This document shows positions 3,702 through 33,636 of a stretch of 41,152 nt of DNA, piece after piece. A program made the translations under genes and the position numbers. Positions within the stretch are counted from its first letter, which is position 1; each line of letters opens with the position of its first letter. This stretch comes from Rubripirellula obstinata. GTDB taxonomy: Bacteria > Planctomycetota > Planctomycetia > Pirellulales > Pirellulaceae. The stretch is taken from contig NZ_LWSK01000049.1 of assembly GCF_001642955.1 (NCBI RefSeq), positions 1 through 41,152 on the forward strand. The letters run 5' to 3'. The notes under the pieces were generated by a model that saw only the letters and a list, made by a program, of their open reading frames with translations, made no database searches and had not been told where the DNA came from.

Positions 3702-3805
3702 AGCCTGGGGCAGCAATTTAAGTAGATGAATGACCGAACGCACCGAGTCTCGATCTATGCCGACGATTCTAGTCGTTGGGCTGTTGGCCGAGTATCAGGG
3801 CGCTG

Positions 3806-4124: not shown

Positions 4125-4160
4125 CACAAACCTGTTCCTTGCTTGCGCTGCGGGCTTTTA
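4076..4160. repeat. Palindromic dispersed repeat, copy 1 (HTH gene / drmD junction)
   Basis: The left arm TACAAGCCCGAAGCGCAAGC at 4076 and the right arm around 4137-4160 (CTTGCTTGCGCTGCGGGCTT) are inverted copies that form a stem of about 20 bp with two mismatches and a loop of ~35 bases. The right arm is followed by TTTATTT, so on the plus strand the element resembles a rho-independent terminator. The left arm supplies the C-terminus and the region of the stop of the HTH gene, and the right arm ends 19 bases before the drmD ATG. Confidence 0.85.
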
Positions 4161-4178
4161 TTTGAAGACCGAATTAAA

Positions 4179-7100
4179 ATGACGACCACCATCGAAACAC
4201 TTCAGCCCGGACAGATCGCTCGGATTCGGCAACGAACCTACTTGGTCGAGCAGATCGTCAAACCCAAACGCGTCGCTGACAGCACGCTGGTGAAGTTGTC
4301 GTGCGTCGATGACGACAACCAAGGTGCGCCGCTGGAAGTGCTCTGGGAAAAGGAACTCGATCCGCAAGTCTTGACCAGCGAAGCGTGGGAAACGATCGCG
4401 GCGAAAGGCTTTGACGAATCGAAGTTGTTCGCTGCGTACTTGAACACGCTGAAATGGAATTGCGTCACATCGACTGACCCGAAACTATTTCAATCGCCGT
4501 TCCGTGCCGGCATCCGCTTGGATGCGTACCAGTTAGAGCCGCTGCGGAAGGCCCTCCTGCTTCCACGCGTCAATCTGTTCATCGCCGATGATGTTGGTTT
4601 AGGGAAAACGATCGAAGCAGGTCTGATTGCTCGCGAGTTGCTGTTGCGGAAGAAGGTCCGCGAAATCTTCGTTTCGTGCCCGCCGTCGATGTTGTTGCAA
4701 TGGAAAGAAGAACTCGAATCACGGTTCGGCCTGACCTTTGAGATTCTCGACAAGGAATACATGAAGCGTGTTCGCCGCGAGCGTGGTTTCAGCGTCAATC
4801 CGTGGAGCACCCACACCCGATTCCTAATCTCGCATCGGTTGCTGATTGACGAAGCCTACGCCGGCCCACTTCGCGATCACCTTGGCACCTTCCGCAGTGG
4901 CTCGTTGTTCATCCTGGACGAAGCCCACCATGCGGCACCATCGAGCGGCCAGAAATACGCGATCGACTCACAGATCACTCGGTCGGTCCGCGACTTGGCT
5001 CCGAGGTTCGAGCATCGGCTGTTCTTGTCGGCGACGCCGCATAACGGGCACTCCAACAGTTTCTCGGCACTACTTGAAATCCTTGATCCCCAACGCTTCT
5101 GTCGCGGCGTTCCCGTATCGGCCAAGCATCGCGACGAGACGATCGTTCGCCGAATCAAAGAGGACATCCGCGAGATTCAGGGCGGCTTTCCCAAACGTCG
5201 TGTCGTCCAAGTCACGATCGACGGGCTGTCCGAAGACGCACCGGAACTGAAGCTCTCGCGCTTGCTCAATGAGTACCGACAAACGCGAGAAGAGCGTTTG
5301 AGCAGTGAAACCAAACGGAAGCAGGCCGCCTCCGGCTTGCTCATCACCGGACTGCAGCAACGGTTGCTTTCATCAATCGAGGCGTTCGCCAAGACGCTGA
5401 AGGTGCACCGCAAGACCGTCAAGCGGCAATGGGAAAAGCAATACAAGCCCGACGCGCAAGCGAGTGACACGGGGCAATTGGAACTTGCCGCCGAACCACC
5501 GCAGTCTTATCGCGTGAAGTCACTCGCTGGCGCTTCGGGATTGTATAGGGCCGACCTCTTATCCGGCAGCGTCGACAGCGATGACGAGCGTGCATCGCTA
5601 ACCGAAGAAGAGATGGCCAGCGAAGTCGCTTCCCAAGTGGAAGCCGTTTCGGCCAGCACGATGGGACCGACCGACGACGCAAGTTCCAAAGGTCTCTTCG
5701 CGCGCGAGCAACAACTGCTCGAAGAGATGACCGACGTCGCCGAACAAGCACGTGGCAAGACCGATGCCCGAACCGAAAAGCTGATCGAGTGGATTCGCGA
5801 CAACATGTGTCCAGATCTGGGCAAGAAAGATGCCCAGTGGAACGACACCCGTGTTTTGATCTTCACCGAGTACGACGACACCAAGCGATATCTGGTCAGC
5901 CGTTTGGAAGCCGCCATCGCCGGCAGCGACCGAGCCGACGCACGAATCAATATCTTTCACGGCCCCACGCCGCCTCCGAAACGGGAGGAGATCAAGCAGG
6001 CTTTCAACACGGACCCCAAGAAGCATCCAGTGCGAATTCTGATCGCCACCGATGCCGCACGCGAGGGCCTGAACCTGCAAGCACACTGCAGCAACCTGTT
6101 TCACTTTGACGTGCCTTGGAACCCGAGCCGCATGGAGCAACGCAACGGGCGAATCGACCGCAAGCTGCAAGCCAAAGACGAAGTCTTCTGCCATTACTTC
6201 GTTTACAAGCAACGTCCGGAAGACCGCATTTTGCAAGTGCTGGTGCGCAAGACCGAAACGATCCGAAAAGAACTCGGCAGTCTGTCGCAAGTCATCGACG
6301 CAAAACTCACCAAGTCGATGAGCCTGGGTATTCGTCACGGTTCGATCGACGACATGGAAGCCGAGATTGACTCGACCGACATCGAAGACAACCGCAGGGC
6401 CGCGATCGAAGACGAACTCGAAGCGTCTCGGATGCGGCAAACCGAGCTTCGCGAACAGATCGACCGGTTGCGAACGCTACTCGAAAAGTCCCGCAAGAGC
6501 ATCGGGCTGAGCGACGAACACTTTCAGTCCGCCATTTCGTGCTCGCTCGCGTTGCTTGGCACCGAGACGCTCACGCAATACCAGCCCGAAGCGCAAGCGA
6601 GTGAGTCTAAAACCGAAGCGCAAGCGAGAGGACAAGGCGCGGAGTCACTCGCTGGCGCTTCGGGCTTGTATGTGCCCGGAAACGTCACCGCTTACCAATT
6701 TCCAGCCATCGACGAACGTTCTGGTGCCGACCCAACCTGGGCCGAAACGATGGACACGTTGCGGGTTCCTCGAAAGCGAGATCAGAAATTGTGGGAGTGG
6801 CGACGATCCTCGCCCATCCGGCCGGTCATCTTTGAAGACCCTGGCGTCGTCGGCGACGATCTCGTCCATTTGCATCTTGAACAACGCGTCGTCCAACGGC
6901 TGCTCGGCCGGTTCACCGCGCAAGGGTTCGTCCATCACGATCTGTCGCGAGCTTGCTTCGCACAGGCCACCGACTCAATTCCCCGCGTCGTCTTACTCGG
7001 TCGGTTGGCCCTTTACGGCGAAGGGGCCGCGAGGTTGCACGAAGAGTTGATTCCCGTCACCGCACGCTGGTCCGACCCCGCCATTCGCAGAGGACCGCTT

Positions 7101-7598
7101 TCGCCCTACGCCAAAGACGCGGAGGCAAAAACGATGGGCCTGCTGGACGATTCGCTGCTCGGTGCCGGCGGAATCAAGCTGACACCCGAAGTCGTCGAAC
7201 AACTTCAACAGTCCGCAGCCGGCGATATTCACGAATTACTACCGCATCTAGAAACACGCGGCGAAGAATACGCCGCCGATGCCGAAAGAAAGCTTGCCGC
7301 CCGAGGAACCGCGGAAGCCAAAGCAATGCGAGAGATTTTGGAAACGCAACGCAAACACATCTCGGACACGATCAAGCGAATCTCCAAGCTCGATCCGAAT
7401 CAAATGCGATTCGACTTTGGTGAAATCGACGATGAACTACTGCAGCTCGATGCCAACAAACGCTACTGGGCCAAACGCCTGGAAGAATTGCGTGACGAAC
7501 TCAAGACCGAGCCTGACCGCATCGCGAGCATCTACGACGTTCAAGCCAAACGCATCGAACCGGTTGGTCTCGTCTACCTCTGGCCGGTGACGGGGTAA
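4179..7598 (+). CDS. drmD: DISARM SNF2-family helicase DrmD
   Basis: This SNF2/SF2 helicase of 1139 residues matches DrmD, the component that marks class 1 DISARM phage-defence loci. Lobe 1 has DDVGLGKTIEAG (~135), LDEAHH (~245) and SATPHNG (~283). Lobe 2 has IFTEYDD (~560), ATDAAREGLNL (~623) and QRNGRIDR (~653). The ATG at 4179 follows a palindromic repeat; an in-frame start at 4143 lies inside that repeat and is unlikely. Two copies of the same repeat are inserted in frame. One is at residues ~421-456 in the linker between the helicase lobes (YKPDAQASD...SLAGASGLY), and the other at ~800-831 in the C-terminal region (YQPEAQASE...SLAGASGLY). They add roughly 30-35 residues each without a stop. 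drmMI starts 6 bases after the stop. Helicase identity is firm; the DrmD label rests on the neighbourhood. Confidence 0.92.
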   Translation: MTTTIETLQPGQIARIRQRTYLVEQIVKPKRVADSTLVKLSCVDDDNQGAPLEVLWEKELDPQVLTSEAWETIAAKGFDESKLFAAYLNTLKWNCVTSTDPKLFQSPFRAGIRLDAYQLEPLRKALLLPRVNLFIADDVGLGKTIEAGLIARELLLRKKVREIFVSCPPSMLLQWKEELESRFGLTFEILDKEYMKRVRRERGFSVNPWSTHTRFLISHRLLIDEAYAGPLRDHLGTFRSGSLFILDEAHHAAPSSGQKYAIDSQITRSVRDLAPRFEHRLFLSATPHNGHSNSFSALLEILDPQRFCRGVPVSAKHRDETIVRRIKEDIREIQGGFPKRRVVQVTIDGLSEDAPELKLSRLLNEYRQTREERLSSETKRKQAASGLLITGLQQRLLSSIEAFAKTLKVHRKTVKRQWEKQYKPDAQASDTGQLELAAEPPQSYRVKSLAGASGLYRADLLSGSVDSDDERASLTEEEMASEVASQVEAVSASTMGPTDDASSKGLFAREQQLLEEMTDVAEQARGKTDARTEKLIEWIRDNMCPDLGKKDAQWNDTRVLIFTEYDDTKRYLVSRLEAAIAGSDRADARINIFHGPTPPPKREEIKQAFNTDPKKHPVRILIATDAAREGLNLQAHCSNLFHFDVPWNPSRMEQRNGRIDRKLQAKDEVFCHYFVYKQRPEDRILQVLVRKTETIRKELGSLSQVIDAKLTKSMSLGIRHGSIDDMEAEIDSTDIEDNRRAAIEDELEASRMRQTELREQIDRLRTLLEKSRKSIGLSDEHFQSAISCSLALLGTETLTQYQPEAQASESKTEAQARGQGAESLAGASGLYVPGNVTAYQFPAIDERSGADPTWAETMDTLRVPRKRDQKLWEWRRSSPIRPVIFEDPGVVGDDLVHLHLEQRVVQRLLGRFTAQGFVHHDLSRACFAQATDSIPRVVLLGRLALYGEGAARLHEELIPVTARWSDPAIRRGPLSPYAKDAEAKTMGLLDDSLLGAGGIKLTPEVVEQLQQSAAGDIHELLPHLETRGEEYAADAERKLAARGTAEAKAMREILETQRKHISDTIKRISKLDPNQMRFDFGEIDDELLQLDANKRYWAKRLEELRDELKTEPDRIASIYDVQAKRIEPVGLVYLWPVTG
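5442..5545. repeat. Palindromic repeat, copy 2, in frame inside drmD
   Basis: The arms TACAAGCCCGACGCGCAAGC (5442) and TCACTCGCTGGCGCTTCGGG (5520) are inverted copies about 52 bases apart. Translated in the drmD frame they give YKPDAQASD and SLAGASGLY. The copy lies in the linker between the two helicase lobes. Confidence 0.88.
6579..6670. repeat. Palindromic repeat, copy 3, in frame inside drmD
   Basis: The left arm TACCAGCCCGAAGCGCAAGC (6579) is followed by a partial second copy of itself (CCGAAGCGCAAGCGAG, ~6612-6627), then by the right arm TCACTCGCTGGCGCTTCGGG ending at 6670. In the drmD frame it reads YQPEAQASE, TEAQARG and SLAGASGLY. Confidence 0.87.
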
Positions 7599-11795: not shown

Positions 11796-11853
11796 CCTAA
11801 CGTGTCCAAGCCCAGGGCAACAATGATTACCAGTAGTTCGATTGAGAAAAGGC

Positions 11854-12969
11854 ATGGCAAAACAGTTTTTTAACGAAGCGAAAGACCAATCAGTCGTCAA
11901 AACGGCGATCGTGACAAAGTATTTTGATGCTTGGTCGCAAGTGATTCTGCCTTGGGCGGAACGTCGCGATGGTCTGCTTGGATACCTCGACCTCTTCGCC
12001 GGCCCCGGTCGTTTTGAGGATGGAACCACATCAACGCCGCTACTGATATTGAGCAAAGCGATCGCCAATCCGCGACTGGCGGATGCGTTGGTGACACGGT
12101 TCAATGACGCCAGCGATGAACATAGCAGCAATTTGAAGTCGGAAATTGACAAGCTACCCGGCATTGAATCGTTGAAGTTTCAGCCAGTGGTCTCATGCGA
12201 TGAAGTCGGCGATCAATTCGTCAAGCAGTTTTCGGAGATGCGTCTGATCCCGACACTCTTCTTTGTTGATCCATTCGGGTACAAGGGGTTGTCGCTTGGA
12301 CTCATCAATTCAGTCTTGAAAGACTGGGGATGCGACTGCATCTTTTTCTTCAACTACAACCGCATCAACATGGGGTTGTCGAACGACGCCGTCAGCGACC
12401 ACATGGCCGGATTATTTGGCAATGGAAGAGCGGCTTCGTTGCGTGGTGAATTGGACGGGTTGTCGCCGGAAGATCGGGAGCTAGCTGTTGTCGAAGCACT
12501 GGCTGAAGAACTCAATCTCGATGGAAAGCGGTTTGTGTTGCCGTTTCGGTTTCGGCACTCGTCTGGAACTCGAACGAGTCATCATCTGATTTTCGTTTCC
12601 AAGAATATTCGCGGTTACGAAATCATGAAATCGGTGATGGCCAAAGAGAGTAGCAATCACGATCAAGGCGTTGCGAGCTTTGAATACAACCGGTCGTTTC
12701 GGGATCAGGGACTTCTTTTTGAACTTTCACGCCCCTTGGATGATCTTCAAATTCTGCTTTGCGATCGTTTCGCCGGTCAATCCTTGACTCGTCGTCAAAT
12801 GTTCGATCAGTCGCACGTTGGGACCCCTTTCGTGCCCGCCAACTACCTGTCGGCTCTATTGCAGCTTGAATTGCTAGGCCGCATTTCGGTTGAGCCACCA
12901 GTCGACAAAAGACGTAAAAATACAATGAGCGAGAACAAAGCAATAATCACTTTTCCAAAGAAGGGTTGA
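11854..12969 (+). CDS. tcmP: Three-Cys-motif partner protein (TcmP family)
   Basis: This 371-residue protein matches the TcmP family, named for its regular pairing with a 'three-Cys-motif' protein, and that partner lies immediately downstream. It has a methyltransferase-like core: [11 protein letters not shown] (~42-52) resembles the SAM-binding motif I, and [11 protein letters not shown] (~134) resembles motif IV. The biochemical activity of the family is not established to my knowledge. The ATG at 11854 was preferred over an in-frame TTG at 11842 because GAGAAAAGG precedes it and the family begins near [12 protein letters not shown]. It lies 58 bases after drmMI and 4 bases before the DUF5131 gene. 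Codon use is more AT-leaning than in drmD or drmA, which fits insertion as a cargo pair. Confidence 0.85.
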
Positions 12970-12973
12970 GGCT

Positions 12974-13726
12974 ATGGCACAATCATCAATCGAATGGACT
13001 GACTCAACTTGGAATCCAGTAACAGGCTGTACAAAGATTAGCGAAGGATGTCGGTTCTGTTACGCAGAGCGTATGTCGCGACGTCTGCTGGCGATGGGGC
13101 AGGCGAACTATGCCAACGGTTTCAAATTGACGTTGCAGGAGGGAATGCTTGACCGTCCGCTTTCCTGGAAAAAGCCGCGATTGATTTTCGTCAATTCAAT
13201 GAGCGACTTGTTCCACAAGGATGTCCCGCTCGAATTTATTCAACGGGTGTTTGAGGTGATGCGACGATCCCATTGGCATGAGTTTCAAGTTTTGACAAAG
13301 CGTAGTGAACGCATCGCCGAATTGTCGAAGGATCTGGATTGGCCTGACAACGTTTGGATGGGTGTGAGTGTCGAGGATCATCGCGTCGTCCATCGAATCG
13401 ACGACCTCCGAAACACAGCGGCAAAAACAAAGTTCCTGTCTGTTGAACCACTGATCGGCTGCCTTGGCAAATTTGACCTTCGCGGCATTGATTGGGTGAT
13501 CGCCGGTGGTGAGTCCGGTCCAGGGTCACGGCCGATGGAACCGGACTGGGTGGTGAAAGTTCGCGACCGATGCCTTGAACAAAGGGTCCCTTTCTTCTTC
13601 AAGCAGTGGGGCGGAGTCAATAAAAAGAAGACAGGGCGAGTGCTTAAAGGCAGAACATGGGACGAGATGCCCCATCGGTTTGCGAAAACAGCGGTAGGGA
13701 AAGCAGCAACGTCTTCTGGAAGCTAG
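12974..13726 (+). CDS. Phage Gp37/Gp68-family (DUF5131) three-Cys-motif protein
   Basis: This 250-residue protein is of the DUF5131 / phage Gp37-Gp68 family. It begins [16 protein letters not shown] and has three cysteines, C19-X6-C26-X2-C29, followed by YAE. These are the 'three Cys' that give the TcmP partner its name and may bind a metal or Fe-S cluster. Other family landmarks are [15 protein letters not shown] (~71), [11 protein letters not shown] (~99), VWMGVSVED (~118), SVEPLIG (~157), [15 protein letters not shown] (~175) and FFFKQWGG (~210). The three-Cys cluster recalls radical-SAM-type proteins, though the spacing is not the canonical CX3CX2C, so radical chemistry is only a guess. 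It is coupled to tcmP by a 4-base gap. Related proteins occur in phages and in bacterial defence regions. Confidence 0.88.
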
Positions 13727-13798
13727 AATCCACAAACAGTCACAATTGTCGGAAACCAGCCGATTTGTCGAATCCACGACAGCCCACGGGAAGGCGAA

Positions 13799-13999
13799 AT
13801 GGAGATGCCGTTGTTTAAACGCCTATTCGACGTCGCCGTTTATCTCGAAAGCGTCTTCGGAAAATCTACACCCGCGTTCCAATACATCGTCACCACGACC
13901 AAAGCCCCACCCAGTTTCTGCACCGAAAACGAACCCCACACCCGCCTCATCCTGCACGGCCGTGAGGATGCCGGGCGGTTGCTGAAGCTGACCTTTTAG
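13799..13999 (+). pseudogene. Fragment resembling the C-terminus of an SMC-like ATP-binding protein
   Basis: A 66-residue frame (LFDVAVYLESVFGKSTPAFQ...TRLILHGREDAGRLLKLTF) ends in TAG. Patterns such as QYIVTTT.APP followed by a short strand and a terminal LL..F remind me of the tails of large coiled-coil ATPases. Nothing upstream in this frame provides the ATPase core. It therefore looks like a leftover 3' end stranded between the DUF5131 and DUF262 genes. The rest of 13727-14119 shows no convincing gene. The assignment is weak and rests on pattern memory only. Confidence 0.3.
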
Positions 14000-14119
14000 T
14001 TTTTTTCCAACTCGGGAGCAAACTCGATCTTCTGCCGGGTGGGCAGAAACGACGCAAACGCCGACAATGCCACGTACCTTGCAAGGTCTTCTTTGCAGCC
14101 AACAACGAATGAAAATACT

Positions 14120-15214
14120 ATGACTGTCAAAACTAAGAACGAAGACGATGTCGAAGGACTCGATGAGAACGTTGATAGCGGACTGGGAGACTATCCGATC
14201 GACACGATGATGATTCGGAAAGAGACCCGAACTATCTTTGATGTCGTACGCCGAATCCAAAACGGCGGATTTGTCTTGGATCCTGATTTCCAGCGGGAAT
14301 TTGTCTGGAATGCAGAGCGTCAGAGTCGCCTCATTGAGTCTGTCATCATGCGAATCCCGCTACCTGTATTCTATCTCGCCGAAGACCTCGAGGGCCGAAC
14401 AATCGTCGTCGATGGATTGCAGCGTTTGACCACTTTCCAGCGCTTCTTTGACAACAGCTTTGCGTTGGAGCTCGGACATCAGGCGTCACTCAACGGGAAG
14501 ACTTTTCAGGAGCTACCACCGAAGTTGCAGAATCGCGTTGAGGATTGCAATCTCGAGCTGTACATCATCGACGCGCAGGTTCCCGAACGAGCGAAGCTAG
14601 ATATTTTTGAGCGTGTGAACAGCGGAGAGCCCCTGACGCGTCAGCAAATGCGAAACTGCATTTACACCGGTCCGGCCAGTCGTTGGCTGAGAGATGAAGT
14701 CGAAAAGCCACTTTTCATCGAGGCAACAGGCAAAAGCCTCCGCCAGAAAACAATGCGAGACCGGGAGTTCGCAAACCGTTTCTGTGCTTTTTATCTACTC
14801 GGACCTGACGAGTACCGGAAAAGTGACATGGACGACTTCCTTGCCCGGTCTCTGACAAAAATGAACAAGATGTCGGAATCGGAGCTTGAAGCTCTTTCAG
14901 AGGCGTTCCGGACTGGCCTCCAGAACAACCTTAATCTTTTTGGTAACCACGCGTTCCGCAAGCACATTCCGGACCAGGACCGACGCAGCGTCGTGAACGC
15001 GTCACTCTGGGATGTCATGTCGACAGGTCTCGCCCGATTCAGTGAAGCCGATGTCTCTAAGAGAGAAGCAATATTCAAGAACGCTTTTTACGCTCTGCTC
15101 GAAAATCATGAATTCATTGATTCGATAACCTATAGCGTGAATAGCACGAACAAGGTTCAGCGACGTTTTGAACTGGCCGGTGAGATGTTCTCGGAGGTGT
15201 TTGATGTTGCGTGA
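14120..15214 (+). CDS. DUF262 (ParB/sulfiredoxin-like NTPase) domain protein
   Basis: This 364-residue protein has the DUF262 signature. FVLDPDFQREFVWN (~50) and IVVDGLQRLTT (~95; the usual form is DGQQRLTT) mark the ParB-like nucleotide-binding and hydrolysing fold, and VNSGEPLTRQQMRNCIY (~174) fits the same family. DUF262 is the N-terminal half of the GmrSD type IV restriction enzyme. The HNH DUF1524 half is absent, so this protein would have to work with partners. The ATG at 14120 was chosen over an upstream GTG at 14039 because the preceding 27 residues look non-coding. The following ATPase gene starts 11 bases before this one ends, which indicates translational coupling. It is the first gene of a three-gene unit inserted in the DISARM locus. 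Confidence 0.85.
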   Translation: MTVKTKNEDDVEGLDENVDSGLGDYPIDTMMIRKETRTIFDVVRRIQNGGFVLDPDFQREFVWNAERQSRLIESVIMRIPLPVFYLAEDLEGRTIVVDGLQRLTTFQRFFDNSFALELGHQASLNGKTFQELPPKLQNRVEDCNLELYIIDAQVPERAKLDIFERVNSGEPLTRQQMRNCIYTGPASRWLRDEVEKPLFIEATGKSLRQKTMRDREFANRFCAFYLLGPDEYRKSDMDDFLARSLTKMNKMSESELEALSEAFRTGLQNNLNLFGNHAFRKHIPDQDRRSVVNASLWDVMSTGLARFSEADVSKREAIFKNAFYALLENHEFIDSITYSVNSTNKVQRRFELAGEMFSEVFDVA

Positions 15215-16355
15215 AATTGAACTGGGTTTCTTTAAGTGCTTTGAAAGGATTGCGCTTCCGTTGGCTCCGTTGACGGTGCTCACTGGAACCAATGCATCTG
15301 GCAAATCCTCCGTCTTTCAAGCATTGGTATTGCTTCGCCAAACCATGGTGATTGACGAGTGGTCCAAGCGACTCTACCTGAATGGCCCTGACCTTGAACT
15401 TGGAACGGTTGCCGATGTCATTGACAAAGTGAACGGAAGATACGAATTTGAACTCGGTGTCAACACCACTGACGAAATGTTGCATTGGCATTTTGCGGCA
15501 GGAAAAAGCAGAGATGACTTCTCGATCGATGTCGGCACCGTCAGGGTGAATAAGGACATCTTTGGCGGTGAGGCAATCGCCAAGAAGCGTCTTCAAAATT
15601 TGGTTCCGGAGGAATCTGAGGCGACGCTTCTAACGAAAGTTCTGCGGGGATTGACCTATCTAACTGCGGAACGAACAGGGCCGAGGCCAACCTACGAATT
15701 GCGAGATAATGAAGTCGCAAAGGTTGTTGGGCCAAGAGGCGACAACGCGATTGGCATTTTGCATCAGAATCGGACGTCGAAGGTTGAGGAGTCACTGGTC
15801 ATATCACCAAAACCGAACAATTTGCTAACGCAGGTTGGGAATCGAATGAATCGCCTGTTTCCTGGTGCATCGATCGACGTCCAGAAAGTCCCACGAACGA
15901 ACTTTGTAACCCTCGGCGTTCGGACATCAGATTCCACTGATTTTCACAGGCCAACCCATGTCGGATTTGGGCTCACGCAGACGCTGCCAGTGATCGTTGC
16001 ATGCTTGAATGCTTCGCCAGGCGATCTTCTGTTAATCGAGAACCCAGAAGTTCATCTTCATCCATCTGGACAGGCGATGATGGGTGAATTCCTCGCGTCG
16101 GTAAGCGCTGCAGGGGTGCAGGTGCTTGTCGAGACGCACAGTGATCACGTTTTGAACGGAGTCAGACGGGCGGTGAAAGGCGAAAAAACAAAATCTTCAG
16201 ATGTCGCGATTCACTTTTTCCAGTCACGAGATATTGAAGGCAATCAAGTCACGAGCCCAACGCTCAATCAATCAGGAGAGATCAGCGATTGGCCCGATGG
16301 TTTTTTTGACCAGTTCGATAAGGACATGAACTTTTTTGCTGGGTGGGGCGAATGA
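15204..16355 (+). CDS. AAA15 / ABC-type ATPase with DUF3696-like C-terminus
   Basis: This 383-residue ABC/OLD-like ATPase has Walker A TGTNASGKSSVFQALVLLRQ (~25-44), a Q-loop region, the signature-like stretch HVGFGLTQTLPVIVACL (~252), Walker B LLIENPEVHLHPSGQ (~275) and the H-loop VETHSDHVLNGVRRAV (~308). The C-terminal SGEISDWPDGFFDQFDKDMNFF matches the DUF3696 extension seen in defence-type AAA15 ATPases. No TOPRIM nuclease domain follows, unlike OLD proteins. The ATG at 15204 overlaps the DUF262 gene by 11 bases and the next gene starts 1 base after the stop, so the three are clearly one translational unit. In many abortive-infection systems such an ATPase acts as sensor or gate for a toxic partner; that role is inferred here. 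Confidence 0.88.
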   Translation: MLREIELGFFKCFERIALPLAPLTVLTGTNASGKSSVFQALVLLRQTMVIDEWSKRLYLNGPDLELGTVADVIDKVNGRYEFELGVNTTDEMLHWHFAAGKSRDDFSIDVGTVRVNKDIFGGEAIAKKRLQNLVPEESEATLLTKVLRGLTYLTAERTGPRPTYELRDNEVAKVVGPRGDNAIGILHQNRTSKVEESLVISPKPNNLLTQVGNRMNRLFPGASIDVQKVPRTNFVTLGVRTSDSTDFHRPTHVGFGLTQTLPVIVACLNASPGDLLLIENPEVHLHPSGQAMMGEFLASVSAAGVQVLVETHSDHVLNGVRRAVKGEKTKSSDVAIHFFQSRDIEGNQVTSPTLNQSGEISDWPDGFFDQFDKDMNFFAGWGE

Positions 16356-16356
16356 A

Positions 16357-17322
16357 ATGGACTTTCTTCTCAACGATCGCTCAATACATGGACAATTTTC
16401 AACAACTTCGGACTTCGTGGCGTCTGCGGAAGCCACGCTCCAGATTCGGTCCGCGATAAAGAAGTCCGGCGGCGATCTCTATTGCCATCGAAACCTTGCC
16501 AATGCCCAAGTGACAAATGATCAGTTCATGTCGAAGGCTGTTCAGGGAATGCGACGTGACGTCAAGCAGATCTGGATGGCTTGGCTCACAAAGGGAGGAC
16601 CTTTTTGGGATGAAGCTCGCCAGCACAGCGAGGACGAGTGGCTGGAGATAGACACGAAAGAGCTGGTGACCGACACCGCAATCGGTGAAGCGGGCTTTTG
16701 TTGTTTGCATGAGTTACCGCGCGAACTGGTAAGCGTTGACCCGTCAGATTGGCTTCGCGATCCGATCGAAGTCATCTGGAAGACATCTGAAACAACCGAA
16801 CGAAGAGTCAGCGTTCCGAATTACTGGTCCGTTGAGGCAATCGAGCAGCGTTTGGGGGCGATTCAACCAACCTTCAAATCCTGGGAATCTCTTGAAGAGC
16901 ATCTAAGAACTTCCTGCGCGTCGGTCGCGTTCGCGGATGATTTCATGCGGATGAAAAAGTTTCCGTATGTGAAGAGCGTCGGCGAGTGGATCAGCATTCT
17001 CGTTCGAGTATTGGACACGCTTAGCGTGAGTATTGACGACAGCGGAAATCGCACGGATAGGGGGCAAGAAGCCTACGACACCTACTTCACTGGCCACGCT
17101 CCCTACTTCACGGACGAGTCAACTTCCAACAAGTCCGCTTATCGTGATGCAATGACGTTTCCGCATCCTACCGAAGCAGGATTGGATCTTTTCTGTACCT
17201 GGCACGGAAAAGTTAATTCGCCATCAAGCTTTCCACCGGTACGAATCCATTTTTCCTGGCCCATTAAGAAACGCGGAGACTTATTCATTCCGTACGTGGG
17301 CAAGAAGATAACGATGAGCTGA
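16357..17322 (+). CDS. Unknown protein coupled to the DUF3696 ATPase, possible effector
   Basis: This 321-residue protein is one I do not recognise as a named family. Visible landmarks are IRSAIKKSGGDLYCHRNLAN (~30), WLTKGGPFWDEARQHSEDEWLE (~75), VTDTAIGEAGFCCL (~105) and a C-terminal block FCTWHGKVN...PPVRIHFSWPI...GDLFIPYVGKKIT (~278-319). I have a general memory of a 'C..HGK...RIHF...Y.GK' ending in uncharacterised proteins beside AAA15 ATPases, but cannot name it. There is no signal peptide or membrane segment. It starts 1 base after the ATPase stop and ends 37 bases before drmA. By position it would be the effector or target-recognition part of a DUF262-ATPase module. Function is unproven. 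Confidence 0.65.
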   Translation: MDFLLNDRSIHGQFSTTSDFVASAEATLQIRSAIKKSGGDLYCHRNLANAQVTNDQFMSKAVQGMRRDVKQIWMAWLTKGGPFWDEARQHSEDEWLEIDTKELVTDTAIGEAGFCCLHELPRELVSVDPSDWLRDPIEVIWKTSETTERRVSVPNYWSVEAIEQRLGAIQPTFKSWESLEEHLRTSCASVAFADDFMRMKKFPYVKSVGEWISILVRVLDTLSVSIDDSGNRTDRGQEAYDTYFTGHAPYFTDESTSNKSAYRDAMTFPHPTEAGLDLFCTWHGKVNSPSSFPPVRIHFSWPIKKRGDLFIPYVGKKITMS

Positions 17323-17358
17323 GACTGTCGCACCGTAAACATCTGTAGGAACAGCAAA

Positions 17359-20300
17359 TTGAGTAAAAGCGAACCAATCGAAGTCCGCCAATCATTGCTG
17401 GATGCGTTGCAGATTGATTTGATTGGCCCGTCGGGGGCACTCGGTGATCATCGCGAGGTTTTGCCGCAGGCTCCGTCGCGTTGGTACCTGACCGGGTTTC
17501 TGGTTCCAACCGATGCCGATGAAGAACAGCGGTTTGATCCCAATAGCGATGACGACATGGATCAGACTCCGGCGGTCGCCGGAGTGGATGAGAATGAGGA
17601 ACCGGAGAAGTCGGCGGCGCGGCGGTCGTATTTGCCCAGCAGCCTGGGATTGAGTGTTCTGGTGCCGGCCGAGACGCAGGAACTGCAAGCGATCGTTCGC
17701 TTCGGCGAATACCTGCGTGTCGAACAGGAAGAGGGCAGCAAGCAGGGTGCTCCAGTTCAGTGGCGACGTAACCCGCACGAAGAGATCGTCTCGGTGGCAC
17801 TCGGCAAGAAGGTGCCCGCTCAGGGCGTGGTGGAAGTGCCAGGTAGCCGCGGTGTTGAAATCGTCTGGTCGTTGCGTGGCGTGCCCGATGGTGAAGTCGA
17901 TGGTGGTTTGCCGAAAGGTACGCGAAGCTTGTCGATGTTCGTGGTCAATCGACGCAAGTCGTCGCCGGACGAAGTGCGCGACGAAGGGTTTATCTTCCAA
18001 GTCGAGCTGGAGGTGCAAAGCGATCTGTCGTTCATTGCGAGGCCGAACCTGCGGAGCCTCGAAAGTGACGACTGGGATGAACGGGTTTCGGATTTGCAGT
18101 ATCGCGATTCATTCGAGTTTTCAGTGGGGCATAGTGTGGCGACCGAATCGGTGGTCGAGGATGGACACTGCAAAACTGTCCGCACCTGTCATCTACCGAC
18201 CGCAGAAGTTGAAAAGGTGGCTCCGTCAAAGATTGACGGTGTGACACTGAACATGGAAACGCTGGCGTTCGTTCGCGATGGCGATGACGCGATGGAACAG
18301 TTGGGGGGATTCGCCAGCAGCTATCGCGACTGGATCGCGAAGCAAACGTCCGGGCTCGGCGGACTCTCGCAGCGACGCACGGACACCGCAAAGGAGTTGC
18401 TGCACCGTGCCGATTTGGCCGCCGGCCGCATTCAAGCGGGGATCGAATTGTTGGCCGACCCGGATTGCCTGGAGGCGTTTCGCATCGCCAACAAGACGAT
18501 GGCGGCTCAAGGGCGACGCCGGCTGGCGTTGCAGTTGGGAAAGGCTCCCGAAGAGATCACGCCGGCGTGGCGACCGTTCCAGTTGGCATTCATTTTGATG
18601 AACTTGAAGGGCATCGCAGAGCCGACCAGTCACGACCGCGACTTGGTCGACTTGCTGTTCTTTCCGACCGGTGGTGGTAAGACGGAAGCCTATCTCGGGC
18701 TGGCCGCGTTCACGTTGGTGCTGCGCCGACTCCGTAATCCTGGGCTGACATCGTCGGGGCTGAGCGTGTTGATGCGATACACACTTCGGTTGTTGACTTT
18801 GGATCAACTTGGCCGAGCCGCGGCGTTGGTTTGTGCGTTGGAATTGGAGCGGCAGAAGGATGTTGAACAGTTGGGCGAGTGGCCGTTTGAGATCGGTTTG
18901 TGGGTGGGCCGCGCGGCGACGCCTAACCGGATGGGCCGCAAGGGCGAGAGCGACCGCGAGTCTGCACGAGCGAAAACGATCGCGTTCAAGAACGATGATC
19001 GCAAGCCTTCGCCGATTCCGTTGGAAGAGTGTCCTTGGTGCGGGACCAAGTTCCGATCCAATTCTTTTCAGTTGGTTCCGAACACGGACAATCCGACCGA
19101 TTTGCGTGTGACGTGCGCGAATCGCCGGTGCGAGTTTTCTCGCGGCAACCCGCTGCCGGTTCTTTCGGTCGACGAACCGATCTATCGTCGCCTGCCGTGC
19201 TTCCTGATCGCGACGGTCGACAAATTCGCCGCGATGCCGTGGACGGGCGAGGTCGGTGGCTTCTTTGGCAAGGTGAACCGTGTCGACAGCGAAGGTTTCT
19301 ACGGACCCTGCGATACCGGTTCGGGACGTCCTTTGCCGGTTGATCGTTTGCCGCCACCCGACCTTGTGATTCAGGACGAATTGCACCTGATATCCGGACC
19401 GTTGGGCACGATGGTTGGGTTGTATGAAACGGCATTGGATGAGTTGTCGACAATTCAAGTCGATGGCCAGGACGTCCGGCCGAAGATCATCGCTTCGACG
19501 GCGACGGTGCGCCGGGCACTCAGTCAGATCCGTTCGTTGTTCAATCGACCCGACGTGGATGTGTTCCCGCCGCCGGGACCGGACATACGCGATTCGTTTT
19601 TTGCTCGAACTCACTCGACGGCGGAAAGTAACGCACGAGAGTACGTCGGCATCGCGGCCCAAGGGCGCAGTCCGAAAGTGATCATGTTGCGGCTGTACCT
19701 CGCACTGCTCGCTGCCTCACAGAAGGCGTATCACGAACATGGCGGCGCTAAAGCCGATCCCAATCCCGCTGATCCCTACATGACTCTGCTCGGGTACTTC
19801 AACAGTCTGCGAGAACTCGGTGGTGCTCGTCGGTTGATTGAAGACGAAGTGCGAACACAGTTGACTGGTCGAGGTAGCCGAAAACGTATCGGTGAAATGG
19901 AGGGATTGTTCAAGGATCGCACGATCGCGTACGAGCCGGTGGAACTGACCAGCCGAGTGAGCACGGACAAGGTTTCCGAAGCGAAGCGACGATTGGAGCA
20001 AGCGTTCAAAGAGAAAGACCGCGTCGACGTGGCGATCGCGACGAACATGATATCGGTCGGTTTGGACATCACGCGTCTGGGCTTGATGGTTTGCTTTGGG
20101 CAACCAAAGACGAGCAGCGAGTACATCCAAGCGACCAGCCGCGTTGGTCGTGATGACAAGCGTCCCGGTCTGGTGATCACTATTCTGAATATTCACCGAC
20201 CGCGTGACCGATCACATTACGAACGCTTTGCTGCGTTCCATGAATCGTTTTATCGAAGTGTGGAAGCGACCAGCGTAACACCGTTCTCGCCGCGAACACT

Positions 20301-20757
20301 CGACCGCGGCTTGGCTGGTACGTTCATCGCGCTGGCACGTCACGGACACTTGCCGATGACGCCACCGCGTGGTGCGACGGAAATCTTGCGTGAGATGCCG
20401 AGCCTGCAGTTTGCGGTCGAGCAACTCGCTGACCGGGCGTTGGAGACGCACCACGATTCCTCTTCGCCGGACGCGGTTGAGCTTCGACAAAAGGTTCTCG
20501 ATCGCTGCAAGGATCTGCTGGATACATGGAGCACGATTGCAAAAGAACTGCACGACACAGGCGGTGCCTTGCAGTACCAAACCGAAACCGGCAGTGCCCA
20601 ACGTTTGCTCTACGAATTTCTGAACCCGGAACTGAAGATGCTGCCGAAACGTCACGACAAGTTTCGAGCCAATCGTTCGATGCGAGATGTTGAGCCGAGT
20701 GTCAATCTGTGGCTGAAAACCATCGACGGGATCGAAATCGACGTGGAGGACGCATGA
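17359..20757 (+). CDS. drmA: DISARM helicase DrmA
   Basis: This superfamily 2 helicase of 1132 residues is the DrmA core subunit, which together with DrmB acts on incoming phage DNA in DISARM. Motif I is LLFFPTGGGKTEAYLGLAAF (~432), and motif II, in the DrmA form IQDELHLISGPLG, is at ~671. Further landmarks are IIASTATVRRAL (~711), ATNMISVGLDITRL (~892) and IQATSRVGRD (~920). A probable zinc site lies between motifs I and II (CPWCG ~557 and CANRRC ~584). The best start is TTG at 17359, with GTAGGAAC just upstream and MSKSEPIEVRQSLLDALQIDLIGP reading like the family start; no nearby ATG fits. The stop is 15 bases before a palindromic repeat that separates it from drmB. Confidence 0.93.
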   Translation: MSKSEPIEVRQSLLDALQIDLIGPSGALGDHREVLPQAPSRWYLTGFLVPTDADEEQRFDPNSDDDMDQTPAVAGVDENEEPEKSAARRSYLPSSLGLSVLVPAETQELQAIVRFGEYLRVEQEEGSKQGAPVQWRRNPHEEIVSVALGKKVPAQGVVEVPGSRGVEIVWSLRGVPDGEVDGGLPKGTRSLSMFVVNRRKSSPDEVRDEGFIFQVELEVQSDLSFIARPNLRSLESDDWDERVSDLQYRDSFEFSVGHSVATESVVEDGHCKTVRTCHLPTAEVEKVAPSKIDGVTLNMETLAFVRDGDDAMEQLGGFASSYRDWIAKQTSGLGGLSQRRTDTAKELLHRADLAAGRIQAGIELLADPDCLEAFRIANKTMAAQGRRRLALQLGKAPEEITPAWRPFQLAFILMNLKGIAEPTSHDRDLVDLLFFPTGGGKTEAYLGLAAFTLVLRRLRNPGLTSSGLSVLMRYTLRLLTLDQLGRAAALVCALELERQKDVEQLGEWPFEIGLWVGRAATPNRMGRKGESDRESARAKTIAFKNDDRKPSPIPLEECPWCGTKFRSNSFQLVPNTDNPTDLRVTCANRRCEFSRGNPLPVLSVDEPIYRRLPCFLIATVDKFAAMPWTGEVGGFFGKVNRVDSEGFYGPCDTGSGRPLPVDRLPPPDLVIQDELHLISGPLGTMVGLYETALDELSTIQVDGQDVRPKIIASTATVRRALSQIRSLFNRPDVDVFPPPGPDIRDSFFARTHSTAESNAREYVGIAAQGRSPKVIMLRLYLALLAASQKAYHEHGGAKADPNPADPYMTLLGYFNSLRELGGARRLIEDEVRTQLTGRGSRKRIGEMEGLFKDRTIAYEPVELTSRVSTDKVSEAKRRLEQAFKEKDRVDVAIATNMISVGLDITRLGLMVCFGQPKTSSEYIQATSRVGRDDKRPGLVITILNIHRPRDRSHYERFAAFHESFYRSVEATSVTPFSPRTLDRGLAGTFIALARHGHLPMTPPRGATEILREMPSLQFAVEQLADRALETHHDSSSPDAVELRQKVLDRCKDLLDTWSTIAKELHDTGGALQYQTETGSAQRLLYEFLNPELKMLPKRHDKFRANRSMRDVEPSVNLWLKTIDGIEIDVEDA

Positions 20758-20926: not shown

Positions 20927-22750
20927 ATGAGCAAGAAACCTGGAGCACGTCCCCACGGACAAATTCGACAAAGCCAATTGATCACCTCGTTTGGTCCCGG
21001 CTCGATGATGGACCTTCCAAATCACTCGGTTCTCGTCGGCGGCCTGGATTTCTGGTCGGCGAGTGGCGATGAAGTGGTCGAACCGCGATTGGTGGAGAAA
21101 TTGAAGCAGCTTTTTGATCCGCCACTCCAGGTGCTGAAGCTTTTCAGTCCGCCACCGGACAACGATGACCCGACTGCTCCGCAAACTGGAATCACGGCAT
21201 GGCAGTTTCCTGAATGGTTCATCACACAGGATGTTGATCGCGACGCGAGCTTCGGCGTCGTGCGAGCTCGCATGTTGGTGCATCGCAAAAGACTGACCAA
21301 GGGCAAGTTCATCGACGACAACAAGAAGAAACGCAGCGTCGTGCCGGTCCGCTTCGTTCGAGCGTGTCGCAGTGGCCATATCGGAGACATCGACTGGTAC
21401 AACTTCGTACATGGTGGAAAAACTGAGTGTCGGCGACAACTTTGGATCGAAGAACGCGGCACGAGTGGCGACTTGGCGGAGGTTTACGTTCGGTGTGAAT
21501 GCGGCAATGCCGAACGCAGCATGGCACTTGCGATCGAACAACCCGAAACGATGCTTCGTTGCGATGGAAGCCGTCCTTGGCTTGGAGCGTACGCCAACGA
21601 GAAATGCGGTGAGCCGAACAGGCTGTTGATCCGAACGGCAAGCAATGCTTACTTCACTCAATTGATGAGCGTGATTTCACTGCCCGATCGGAATGTCGAG
21701 CTTCGTGAAGCAGTCGAGTTGGTTTGGGATTTCATCGGTGAGGCGGAAGACGTCGGCGAACTGAAATACGAACGCAAGAAAGCCAAGGTCAATGCGGCTC
21801 TCGACGGCTACGACAACGAAGAAGTGTTTGCCGAAGTGAAGATGCGTCGCGGTCAGTCGGCTGGGCCGCCGAAGACGATCAAGCAAGCGGAGATGGAAAC
21901 GCTGATCGCCAGCAAAGATGAGCTTGGCGATGACAAGCCGGACGGAAACTTCTTTGCCAGGACTCTGCCGAAGGAGGTTTGGGACAAACCCTGGATGCGG
22001 TCGATCGAACGAATCGTGCTGGTGCATCGACTCCGCGAAGTCATGGCTCAGGTTGGCTTCACACGTTTTGAGGCGGTCTCACCGGACATCGACGGTGAGC
22101 TCGAGATGGGCGTTCGGCGGGCTTCGCTCGCTCGCGAAATCACGTGGTTACCGGCCGTCGAAAACCGTGGCGAAGGAATCTTCATTCAATTCAAAAAAGA
22201 AGAGGTGGAGAACTGGGCTACCCGGCCTGAGGTTCAGGCCCGTGGGATACGTTTGCTCGGTGGCTATGAAGCTTGGAAAGCCGAGCGAAGTGGTGCAACC
22301 AAGAAGTTTGTGGAGGAGGGCGGATTGCTTCCCTACGTCTTGTTTCATTCCTTCGCCCACATGCTGATCACATCGGTCTCGCTCGAATGCGGTTATCCCG
22401 CCAGTTCGATTCGCGAACGGATCTACACGATCCCCGACATCGGTTACGGCGTGCTGCTTTACACCGGAACCTCGGACGCTGAAGGTACGCTTGGCGGATT
22501 GATTCAGGTGGGCCGTCGAATCCACGAGCACATTCGGGGCGCTCTTGAGATGGGTGAGTTGTGTTCAAACGATCCGGTTTGTGCACAGCATGAACCCGCC
22601 AATCAGCACGAACGGCGATTCCTTCATGGGGCAGCTTGCCATGGATGCTTGCTGATTTCCGAGACATCGTGCGAGCAGCACAATGAGTTTCTCGATCGGG
22701 CACTGGTCGTTCCGACGGTTGACAACTTGGGCATCGAGTTCTTTTCATGA
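20927..22750 (+). CDS. drmB: DISARM DUF1998 protein DrmB
   Basis: This 607-residue protein matches DrmB, the partner that forms a complex with the DrmA helicase. It opens with RPHGQIRQSQLITSFGPGSMMDLP, the usual DrmB start. The C-terminal half is DUF1998-like: YVLFHSFAHMLITSVSLECG (~467), ERIYTIPDIGYGVLLYTGTSDAEGTLGGL (~500), then a cysteine cluster CSNDPVC (~545), CHGC (~570) and C-X3-H (~583) that probably binds zinc. A GGAG box lies 10 bases before the ATG and directly follows the repeat, so the element may have left just enough room for translation to start. The stop codon is immediately followed by another repeat copy. Confidence 0.93.
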   Translation: MSKKPGARPHGQIRQSQLITSFGPGSMMDLPNHSVLVGGLDFWSASGDEVVEPRLVEKLKQLFDPPLQVLKLFSPPPDNDDPTAPQTGITAWQFPEWFITQDVDRDASFGVVRARMLVHRKRLTKGKFIDDNKKKRSVVPVRFVRACRSGHIGDIDWYNFVHGGKTECRRQLWIEERGTSGDLAEVYVRCECGNAERSMALAIEQPETMLRCDGSRPWLGAYANEKCGEPNRLLIRTASNAYFTQLMSVISLPDRNVELREAVELVWDFIGEAEDVGELKYERKKAKVNAALDGYDNEEVFAEVKMRRGQSAGPPKTIKQAEMETLIASKDELGDDKPDGNFFARTLPKEVWDKPWMRSIERIVLVHRLREVMAQVGFTRFEAVSPDIDGELEMGVRRASLAREITWLPAVENRGEGIFIQFKKEEVENWATRPEVQARGIRLLGGYEAWKAERSGATKKFVEEGGLLPYVLFHSFAHMLITSVSLECGYPASSIRERIYTIPDIGYGVLLYTGTSDAEGTLGGLIQVGRRIHEHIRGALEMGELCSNDPVCAQHEPANQHERRFLHGAACHGCLLISETSCEQHNEFLDRALVVPTVDNLGIEFFS

Positions 22751-22889: not shown

Positions 22890-23684
22890 ATGCACAACGT
22901 CTTTTCTCAGCTCAGTGATAACTCTCTCAAAGCGATTGCGAGTGGACTTCAATCGGGCCGTGTTACGTTGCCAGGATCTGCGCTGCAAATAGGCCGACTT
23001 GTTTCTCGTGACCTGTGTGATGCTGTCGTCCAAGAGTTGGCTGCACTTTCAAGTCTGAACTTCACTTCCGATCAGGTGGCCGTACTGCTGGAAAGGCTTT
23101 TGTCAGACCGACAATCGCACCGCGACAAGCGATCAAGTGAAATCGACTTGGTGACTTCAGGCCCAGCAGCACCCGGAATCACCAACCGCGACACTTCCGT
23201 GGTAGTTCGAGAAATGTTCGCACACGCCGAGCGGTCAGTCACCGTTGTCGGATACGCGGTCTATCAAGGCCAAATGGTTTTTGAAGCCCTCGCAAAACGC
23301 ATGGACAAAGTCCCAGAACTCGAAGTGGAGTTCTTCCTCAACATTTCACGTCCAGATCGCGACACCACCAAGTCCGACATCTTGGTCTCGCGCTTTATCG
23401 AGCGTTTCAAGACAACTCAATGGCCCAGCGGAAGTCGTTTGCCATCCGTCTACTACGATCCTCGATCCGTTGCCGATGAAGGGCGAGTTCGCTCTTCGCT
23501 ACACGCCAAATGCGTCATCGTTGACAAGCGTCACGTCTTCATCTCCTCCGCCAACTTCACCGAAGCCGGACAACAGAGAAACATCGAAGTTGGGTTGCAT
23601 CTCAACTCGGAACATCTCGCAAACAAGACGTCGCTGCATTTCAAAAAAATGCTTGAAGCCGATCTTTTCCGCCGTGCGTTGTGA
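22890..23684 (+). CDS. drmC: DISARM phospholipase D-like protein DrmC
   Basis: This 264-residue protein with one clear PLD/nuclease HKD motif, LHAKCVIVDKRHVFISSANFTEAG (~202-225), matches DrmC, the accessory subunit of DISARM. Upstream of it, MFAHAERSVTVVGYAVY (~109) is the usual strand pair of the PLD fold. With one HKD per chain, a dimer would be needed for a complete active site. The ATG at 22890 comes four bases after a palindromic repeat, and no ribosome binding site is visible, because the repeat occupies the place where one should be. Expression may therefore be low or depend on read-through from drmB. The gene closes the DISARM operon. Confidence 0.9.
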   Translation: MHNVFSQLSDNSLKAIASGLQSGRVTLPGSALQIGRLVSRDLCDAVVQELAALSSLNFTSDQVAVLLERLLSDRQSHRDKRSSEIDLVTSGPAAPGITNRDTSVVVREMFAHAERSVTVVGYAVYQGQMVFEALAKRMDKVPELEVEFFLNISRPDRDTTKSDILVSRFIERFKTTQWPSGSRLPSVYYDPRSVADEGRVRSSLHAKCVIVDKRHVFISSANFTEAGQQRNIEVGLHLNSEHLANKTSLHFKKMLEADLFRRAL

Positions 23685-33140: not shown

Positions 33141-33636
33141 ATTGGCGGTTGAGATTGGTCGTCTGGAGAAGATGACAGTTGATCAGTTGGTGGCCAAGTA
33201 TGAGGTGACGTTTGGCGAAGTGTGCCGCAGTCGCCACAAGCGTTACTTGATTCGACGGATTGCTTGGCGGATGCAGGCGAAGGTCGAAGGCGGTTTGTCG
33301 GACCGAGCACGGAAGACCGCGAATCGACTGGCGGCAACCTCGGACGCTCGGCAAACACCGCCGCGTGACATGTCGGTGTTTGAGAAACGCCCGAAGCCGA
33401 AGTCAACCAAGACGAAAGAACCTGTCGTTGATCCACGGTTGCCGCCGCCGGGGAACTGGATCGAGCGGCAATACAAGGGGCGCATGATCAGCGTCTTGGT
33501 GCTCGAACGCGGCTTTGAATTCAGCGGCAAATGGTATCGGTCGCTGTCGGCGATCGCGAACGAAGTCTGTGGCACGAACTACAACGGCTTCGAGTTTTTC
33601 AAACTTGGCAAGAAACCACCGAAGGGGAAATCATGA
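33130..33636 (+). CDS. DUF2924 protein of recombinase cassette
   Basis: This 168-residue protein has the DUF2924 pattern. The N-terminal half contains RLEKMTVDQLVAKYEVTFGE and the helix YLIRRIAWRMQ. The C-terminal half is DPRLPPPGNWIERQYKGRMISVLVLERGFEFSGKWYRSLSAIANEVCGTNYNGFEFFKLG. DUF2924 genes commonly sit before serine recombinases in phage-like elements and may help target DNA. Its function is not established. The recombinase ATG overlaps the stop (ATGA). Confidence 0.85.
   Translation: MSPELAVEIGRLEKMTVDQLVAKYEVTFGEVCRSRHKRYLIRRIAWRMQAKVEGGLSDRARKTANRLAATSDARQTPPRDMSVFEKRPKPKSTKTKEPVVDPRLPPPGNWIERQYKGRMISVLVLERGFEFSGKWYRSLSAIANEVCGTNYNGFEFFKLGKKPPKGKS

What the first reader, a model, noticed from the sequence alone, without database searches (positions are those of the whole stretch)
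14120..17322. DUF262 - DUF3696 ATPase - unknown protein trio: candidate undescribed defence module
Three genes are coupled (11-base overlap, then a 1-base gap). A DUF262 protein without its HNH half, an AAA15 ATPase without a TOPRIM nuclease, and a protein of unknown family with a conserved-looking WHGK...RIHF...GKK tail do not match GmrSD, Septu or OLD systems as I know them. ATPase plus unknown coupled partner inside a defence island is a common sign of an abortive-infection system.
Basis: partly seen in the sequence, partly recalled or inferred. Interest (0 to 1): 0.75.

Follow-up and report, generated by a model that had tools for sequence, protein, structure and literature searches.

The report
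Menshen defence trio inside DISARM operon
The three linked genes are a copy of the already named anti-phage system Menshen, sitting inside the operon of a second known defence system (DISARM) at a junction where related operons often carry other extra genes.

Summary
In detail: three + strand genes at 14120-15214, 15204-16355 and 16357-17322 (11-base overlap, then one base between). "Undescribed" is not. PADLOC models name all three: NsnA 1.1e-120, NsnB 6.9e-107, NsnC 4.1e-114, i.e. Menshen. Of 18 NsnC relatives found in genome contigs, 16 have NsnA and NsnB directly upstream, one has a fused deletion, one contig is cut.

Most likely NsnA is a nucleotide-binding sensor, NsnB an ABC-type ATPase switch and NsnC the effector, its C-domain (H-x-K...R-x-H...G-x-K) being the candidate catalytic part. 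A published BECR/RelE reading of the third protein of a look-alike operon (ptuXYZ) was not reproduced here.

In related loci that junction holds 1 kb or more in 14 of 23, against 2 of 18 at drmD|drmMI. The window also carries a fossil of an earlier occupant. A second genome has Menshen at the same spot, probably by separate capture (AU p=0.030).

The parts
14120..15214 (+). nsnA: DUF262/GmrSD_N protein, 364 aa, no HNH half detected
   Evidence: Pfam PF03235 7.2e-24; PADLOC NsnA 1.1e-120; D98, G99, Q101, R102 of the DGxQR motif invariant in 21 of 21 rows
15204..16355 (+). nsnB: ABC/AAA_21-type ATPase with C-terminal DUF3696, 383 aa, no TOPRIM detected
   Evidence: Pfam AAA_21 2.4e-22, DUF3696 1e-13; PADLOC NsnB 6.9e-107; G33-K34-S35, P281-E282-x-HLHP and H312 invariant in 21 of 21 rows, residues 279-280 EN in 18 and DS in 3
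16357..17322 (+). nsnC: 321 aa, proposed effector; C-domain modelled as residues 186-321 with WHGK...RIHF...GxK
   Evidence: PADLOC NsnC PDLC03896 4.1e-114; alignment A1 of 18 rows; models pLDDT 89.3 whole, 90.3 C-domain
4143..7598 (+). drmD, class 1 DISARM SNF2-like helicase (surrounding operon)
   Evidence: PADLOC DrmD PDLC02621, 1053.9 bits
7605..11795 (+). drmMI, class 1 DISARM methyltransferase
   Evidence: PADLOC DrmMI PDLC02643, 1280.6 bits
11842..12969 (+). TcmP-like protein (name recalled) with GMT-wHTH domain, PDC-M30A candidate defence gene, cargo in the same slot
   Evidence: PADLOC PDC-M30A 1e-20; Pfam PF22560 2.3e-11
12974..13726 (+). DUF5131 protein, PDC-M30B/M41B candidate defence gene, cargo in the same slot
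   Evidence: Pfam PF07505 4.4e-102; PADLOC PDC-M41B 3.3e-123, PDC-M30B 1e-118
13775..13999 (+). fossil: C-terminal end of the 648-668 aa LmuB-like protein that fills this slot in related operons
   Evidence: 66 residues from 13799: 48.5% identity to the G431 protein (L084), E 6.6e-15; 43% to G064 and G110; frame open back through HDSPREGE, close to HDSPREGD of the relatives
17359..20757 (+). drmA, DISARM helicase, 36 bases after nsnC
   Evidence: PADLOC DrmA 2.5e-303
20927..22750 (+). drmB
   Evidence: PADLOC DrmB 6e-80
22890..23684 (+). drmC, phospholipase-D-like protein
   Evidence: PADLOC DrmC 6.9e-80; Pfam PLDc_2 1e-10

Best explanation
The trio is a Menshen anti-phage system (nsnA-nsnB-nsnC) nested between drmMI and drmA of a class 1 DISARM operon. 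Shown here: family identity, gene order, intact motifs, nesting. Inferred mechanism (about 45% likely in this form): NsnA binds a nucleotide through its DGxQR pocket and reads an infection sign, most plausibly foreign or modified DNA. NsnB, an ABC-type ATPase without a detectable nuclease domain, assembles with NsnA and NsnC and couples that signal to ATP hydrolysis. NsnC is then released or activated as the effector through its C-terminal H-x-K...R-x-H...G-x-K domain, probably cutting nucleic acid (RNA or DNA) and stopping phage growth or killing the cell. Because the genes share the operon strand and end 36 bases before drmA, they are probably co-transcribed with DISARM as an independent second layer (inferred).
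For: PADLOC NsnA 1.1e-120, NsnB 6.9e-107, NsnC 4.1e-114. NsnA and NsnB directly before NsnC in 16 of 18 genome-contig loci, in all 3 plasmid records found with NsnC, and in 5 of 7 further plasmid records opened out of 29 remaining NsnA hits; the third genes of those 5 all match NsnC models. DGxQR, Walker A, PE-x-HLHP and the switch histidine conserved in 21 rows. NsnC is the most variable partner (35-45% identity to the window where NsnA is 55-67%), as expected of an effector or a sensor arm. Its polar tail is kept across NsnC subfamilies, though hardly alignable in one (L107). A review says that mutation or deletion of the DUF262 gene abolishes Menshen protection (PMC10952713, passages), and a survey table files Menshen under nucleic acid degradation (PMC10855318, passage). 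Nesting.
Against: No activity of any protein was tested. NsnC has no fold relative at E<=0.001 in PDB or BFVD, so 'nuclease' rests on residue types only. PMC10952713 says a Menshen component carries an OLD/TOPRIM nuclease; none is seen in this NsnB. Co-transcription is not shown: 393 bases separate DUF5131 from nsnA, room for an own promoter. The 196 other relatives searched lack this NsnC, so its role in this lineage may be recent.
Confidence: 0.8

Rival explanations
1. NsnC is a two-domain RNase toxin: an inactive PIN-like N-domain plus a RelE/YoeB-type (BECR) C-domain, as proposed for PtuZ of the ptuXYZ operon, so the trio is a toxin-antitoxin-like abortive system.
For: The ptuXYZ operon (DUF262, PtuA-like ATPase, two-domain third protein) has the same make-up (PMC11980606, section 26 read). 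Order of elements in the NsnC C-domain model (helix, helix, then strands) is compatible with a BECR fold (recalled topology). One chain of an MqsR-MqsA toxin-antitoxin structure appears among the C-domain hits, but at E 4.9, probability 0.01 (rank 37).
Against: Foldseek of the whole and C-domain models against PDB gives no match at E<=0.001, and no RelE, YoeB or HigB entry among the 50 rows shown of each (329 and 152 matches at E<=10). hhalign of NsnC C-domains against YoeB and HigB alignments gives at most 1.7% probability, while the YoeB-HigB control gives 85% (one of 8 YoeB rows was in a wrong frame). Pfam finds no toxin family in 8 NsnC proteins.
Confidence: 0.25
2. NsnA is the nuclease (ParB/Srx-type nicking) and NsnC a target-recognition or regulatory subunit.
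For: PMC11980606 calls the DUF262 partner a putative nuclease. NsnC is the most diverged partner, which also fits a sensor under phage pressure.
Against: In GmrSD, BrxU and SspE the DNA-cutting part is DUF1524 (passages), which is not detected in NsnA. The best conserved residues of the NsnC tail are polar types that can be catalytic.
Confidence: 0.2
3. The trio has become a working part of this DISARM (a DISARM accessory), not an independent system.
For: Nested between drmMI and drmA on the same strand, 36 bases from drmA; same nesting in G431. ShdA homologues inside DISARM operons were suggested possibly to cooperate with it (PMC10270631, passages).
Against: The trio stands without drm genes on the contigs of the other 2 of 4 class genomes that have it (contigs of 10.9 and 6.3 kb). 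None of the 16 intact genome contigs trios shows a DrmA match in the DNA held (up to 9 kb each side, less in L008 and L011); L009 and L015 show only weak DrmD or DrmMI matches (25-33% identity). The two nested copies are not sisters (AU p=0.030).
Confidence: 0.15

Closest known systems
Menshen (NsnABC)
   Same: All three proteins match the family models nearly end to end, in the order A-B-C.
   Different: NsnC belongs to one of many subfamilies (model PDLC03896); this copy lies inside a DISARM operon; no TOPRIM detected in NsnB.
ptuXYZ (Gerdes 2025, PMC11980606)
   Same: DUF262 protein, PtuA-like ATPase, two-part third protein.
   Different: The BECR and PIN folds claimed for PtuZ are not detected in this NsnC.
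PD-T4-2
   Same: Its component A model scores on NsnA at 7.9e-38.
   Different: Far weaker than NsnA's own model (1.1e-120).
GmrSD / BrxU / SspE
   Same: DUF262 with a DGxQR-type motif.
   Different: No DUF1524 HNH domain detected.
Septu, Gabija, OLD
   Same: ATPase of the same broad class (weak PADLOC scores).
   Different: No HNH partner and no TOPRIM detected.
Class 1 DISARM
   Same: drmD, drmMI, drmA, drmB, drmC all present around the trio.
   Different: Five genes and one gene remnant sit between drmMI and drmA.

Membership tests
Menshen | NsnA: DUF262 protein without HNH | tested here: met
   PADLOC NsnA 1.1e-120; Pfam GmrSD_N only
Menshen | NsnB: ATPase with DUF3696 | tested here: met
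   PADLOC NsnB 6.9e-107; DUF3696 1e-13
Menshen | NsnC as third gene | tested here: met
   PADLOC NsnC PDLC03896 4.1e-114, residues 1-320 of 321
Menshen | Order A-B-C, tightly coupled, one strand | tested here: met
   same in 16 of 18 loci
Menshen | OLD/TOPRIM nuclease in one component (as stated in PMC10952713; not taken as defining here) | tested here: not met
   No TOPRIM family in NsnA, NsnB or NsnC at E<=0.001. PADLOC's NsnB model matches residues 1-377 of this 383-aa protein, leaving no room for one; the statement may refer to the OLD-like ATPase part
Menshen | Protection against phage | not testable with these tools
   Needs plaque assays
ptuXYZ (BECR RNase third gene) | C-terminal RelE/YoeB-like BECR fold | tested here: inconclusive
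   No Foldseek match at E<=0.001; hhalign at most 1.7% with 85% control; absence of a match does not prove a different fold
GmrSD | DUF1524 HNH domain | tested here: not met
   (E<=0.001)
Septu | HNH partner PtuB | tested here: not met
   No family in the third protein even at E<=10
OLD/Gabija | TOPRIM after the ATPase | tested here: not met
   (E<=0.001)
PD-T4-2 | Second component beside the DUF262 protein | not tested
   Only the score of component A on NsnA was seen
Class 1 DISARM (surrounding operon) | drmD, drmMI, drmA, drmB, drmC | tested here: met

The most novel reading that the evidence does not exclude
The drmMI|drmA junction of class 1 DISARM is a cargo slot inside a defence operon: interchangeable whole modules (Menshen, PDC-M30, a DarTG-like set, GmrSD, a LmuB-like pair and others) are captured, co-expressed with DISARM, and swapped. 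Menshen has entered it at least twice, and the window preserves the fossil of a displaced occupant. DISARM would thus be a chassis that carries and exchanges its own back-up effectors.
Probability: 0.35. Interest if true: 0.55.

Novelty: new member of a known kind. Interest (0 to 1): 0.3.

Why it matters
It removes a false lead (not an undescribed system) and ties it to a named system that a 2026 review lists under unknown mechanism (PMC12926258, passage). The conserved NsnC tail residues give direct mutational targets. The operon-interior slot, if general, offers a simple way to find accessory defence modules: read what lies between drmMI and drmA.

Tried and rejected
Undescribed module: rejected on the PADLOC match. 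GmrSD, Septu, OLD/Gabija: rejected for lack of a detectable HNH or TOPRIM. RelE/YoeB-type domain in NsnC: looked for by Pfam, PDB sequences, Foldseek of two models against PDB and of the whole model against BFVD and hhalign; none supported it. The viral-contig scan found no relative. The NsnB family search over the phylum was too unspecific to count (355 of 392 genomes match at E<=0.001); only top rows were used, and of those fetched, L099-L102 show only distant NsnA/NsnB matches and were not followed.

Limits of the junction count: 35 stretches were read; 12 without both DrmMI and DrmA on one strand were left out; the 23 counted come from 22 genomes, and the window itself is not among them. 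The drmA|drmB control (0 of 18) is biased, because most fetched stretches end soon after drmA, so I rely on drmD|drmMI. Gaps are between tblastn match ends, so a diverged end of DrmMI can lengthen them (probably in L136). Only 16 proteins of the cargo were scanned; several inserts (L088, L089, L093, L135, most of L134) were not.

Papers: the two main Menshen papers (Millman 2022; Li et al. 2025, gkaf357, on Menshen domain polymorphism) are not held. The second was seen only as a reference entry, so it may already describe this NsnC type and its fold. That Nsn genes are the Menshen genes is recalled; PADLOC prints only the Nsn names. Of the 5 held papers with both Menshen and DISARM I saw passages of all 5. 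None of those passages, and nothing in the other listings and passages seen (searches), describes Menshen inside DISARM; the library lacks most subscription papers.
Full report
Observation. Domain content is as stated: a DUF262 protein without a detectable HNH half, an AAA_21/AAA_15 ATPase with DUF3696 and no detectable TOPRIM, and a 321-aa protein without any Pfam family or any NCBIfam family above cut-off.

Identity. PADLOC-DB names all three: NsnA 1.1e-120, NsnB 6.9e-107, NsnC 4.1e-114. These are the Menshen genes (the link from Nsn to Menshen is recalled; PMC10952713 describes Menshen as holding a DUF262 gene whose loss abolishes protection, passages). The next best model for NsnA is PD-T4-2_A at 7.9e-38.

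Conservation of the trio. A scan of genome contigs with NsnC gave 18 relatives (35-43% identity) from Chloroflexota, Proteobacteria, Actinobacteria, Acidimicrobiia, Binatia and others. tblastn of the window proteins found NsnA and NsnB directly upstream in 16 of 18; in L018 the start of NsnB runs into the end of NsnC in one frame; L017 starts inside NsnC. Three plasmid records with NsnC all carry DUF262-DUF3696 before it, one of them between two recombinase-family genes (L022). Of 32 plasmid records with NsnA relatives I opened 7 beyond those 3. Five are trios whose third genes match NsnC models of other subfamilies; L108 has DUF262 next to a HEPN gene; L109 shows no annotated DUF3696 gene (that gene table is incomplete). 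Among 197 genomes (the window's own and 196 relatives) only the window's has this NsnC; in 397 genomes of the class, 4 do, the window's included.

Motifs. In 21 NsnA and 21 NsnB rows the DGxQR residues of NsnA, and the Walker A residues G33, K34 and S35, P281-E282-x-HLHP and H312 of NsnB, are invariant; residues 279-280 of NsnB are EN in 18 and DS in 3. In NsnC the tail W282-H-G-K, R296, H298, Y313, G315 and K317 is invariant in the 18 rows. Across 13 diverse NsnC proteins R296 is invariant and H283 and G315 nearly so; in L107 most of the tail cannot be aligned.

Fold of NsnC. The whole model has pLDDT 89.3 and pTM 0.67; the C-domain 90.3 and 0.84. Foldseek found no match at E<=0.001 in PDB for either or in BFVD for the whole. 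The only entry of a BECR-type toxin complex that I see among the rows shown is an MqsR-MqsA chain at E 4.9, probability 0.01. Profile comparison with YoeB and HigB gave at most 1.7% probability against 85% for the YoeB-HigB control. The BECR/PIN reading published for the third protein of the similar ptuXYZ operon (PMC11980606) is therefore not supported for this subfamily, though not excluded.

Mechanism. NsnA as nucleotide-bound sensor, NsnB as ABC ATPase switch, NsnC as effector is an inference from domain classes, motif conservation and the variability of NsnC. PMC10952713 proposes a regulatory NTPase role for the DUF262 part. Whether the cell dies is unknown.

Context. The trio lies between drmMI (7605-11795) and drmA (17359-20757) of a complete class 1 DISARM, together with a TcmP-like/DUF5131 pair that matches candidate system PDC-M30. 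A search for the window's DrmA in 392 phylum genomes found 35 with E<=1e-60, the window's included. In G431 the order is DrmD, DrmMI, a 180-aa and a 668-aa protein, NsnA, NsnB, NsnC, DrmA, DrmB, DrmC. Of 35 stretches read, 23 (22 genomes) show DrmMI and DrmA on one strand: 14 of 23 have 1 kb or more between them, against 2 of 18 at drmD|drmMI (Fisher p=0.0015; the loci are related, so the p value is only a guide). The other 9 have 79-328 bases. The cargo differs: DarT, DarG and a Peptidase_M78 protein (L096), GmrSD (L092), DarG with PDC-M11A (L129), an NsnA-like DUF262 gene (L131), a LmuB-like pair (L084; similar proteins in L086 and L087), and an HEC-01A ATPase upstream of drmA in L098, where DrmMI was not seen and which is not counted. 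Some scanned cargo has no PADLOC match at E<=1e-8: the L127 beta-CASP protein, the two L136 proteins, one L134 protein, the L131 CBS protein, the L087 277-aa and the L084 180-aa proteins.

Turnover. Window 13775-13999 holds the last residues of that LmuB-like protein (48.5% identity, E 6.6e-15, to G431), directly behind the DUF5131 gene; the inference is that the PDC-M30 pair displaced it. The window's DrmA is closest to G064 and G110 (81%), which have the LmuB-like gene but no Menshen. In a 23-row NsnABC tree the G431 trio groups with the stand-alone G809 trio (support 98), not with the window; grouping the two nested copies is rejected at AU p=0.030. Two captures at one site are the simplest reading; later transfer out of one nested copy is not excluded.

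Precedent. About 70 ShdA homologues embedded in DISARM-like operons are in print (PMC10270631, passages), and auxiliary effectors embedded in BREX core loci are described (PMC12839542, passages). I found no held paper on Menshen within DISARM or on the drmMI|drmA junction as a slot (searches).

Verdict. An ordinary copy of a named system in a noteworthy place.

Noticed in passing
window 11796-17358 and L084, L086-L089, L092, L093, L096, L127, L129, L131, L134-L136: The drmMI|drmA junction of class 1 DISARM carries at least 1 kb of varied, often defence-type cargo in 14 of 23 related loci.
   Followed up: partly
window 13775-13999: Fossil of the C-terminus of a LmuB-like protein that occupies the slot in G431, G064 and G110.
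   Followed up: yes
window 11842-13726: TcmP-like plus DUF5131 pair matching PADLOC candidate PDC-M30, in the same slot.
   Followed up: no
window 100-3743 (-), 24852-26069 (+), 33531-35222 (+): McrBC-type pair left of DISARM; two recombinase-type genes to the right, suggesting a mobile island.
   Followed up: no
L018:8620-9651: NsnB residues 1-138 run in frame into NsnC residues 103-319: a decayed Menshen or an assembly error.
   Followed up: no
L148:3399-4433 (-): NsnB in G859 matches only from residue 34, without Walker A in that frame.
   Followed up: no
L022:2351-7387: Menshen trio of a Gluconobacter plasmid lies between two recombinase-family genes.
   Followed up: no
L108:3357-5193: NsnA-like DUF262 gene next to a HEPN gene behind an N-6 methylase gene, a different pairing.
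   Followed up: no
PMC11980606 (literature): The 'novel' ptuXYZ operon looks like Menshen under another name; 'Menshen' does not occur in its main text.
   Followed up: partly
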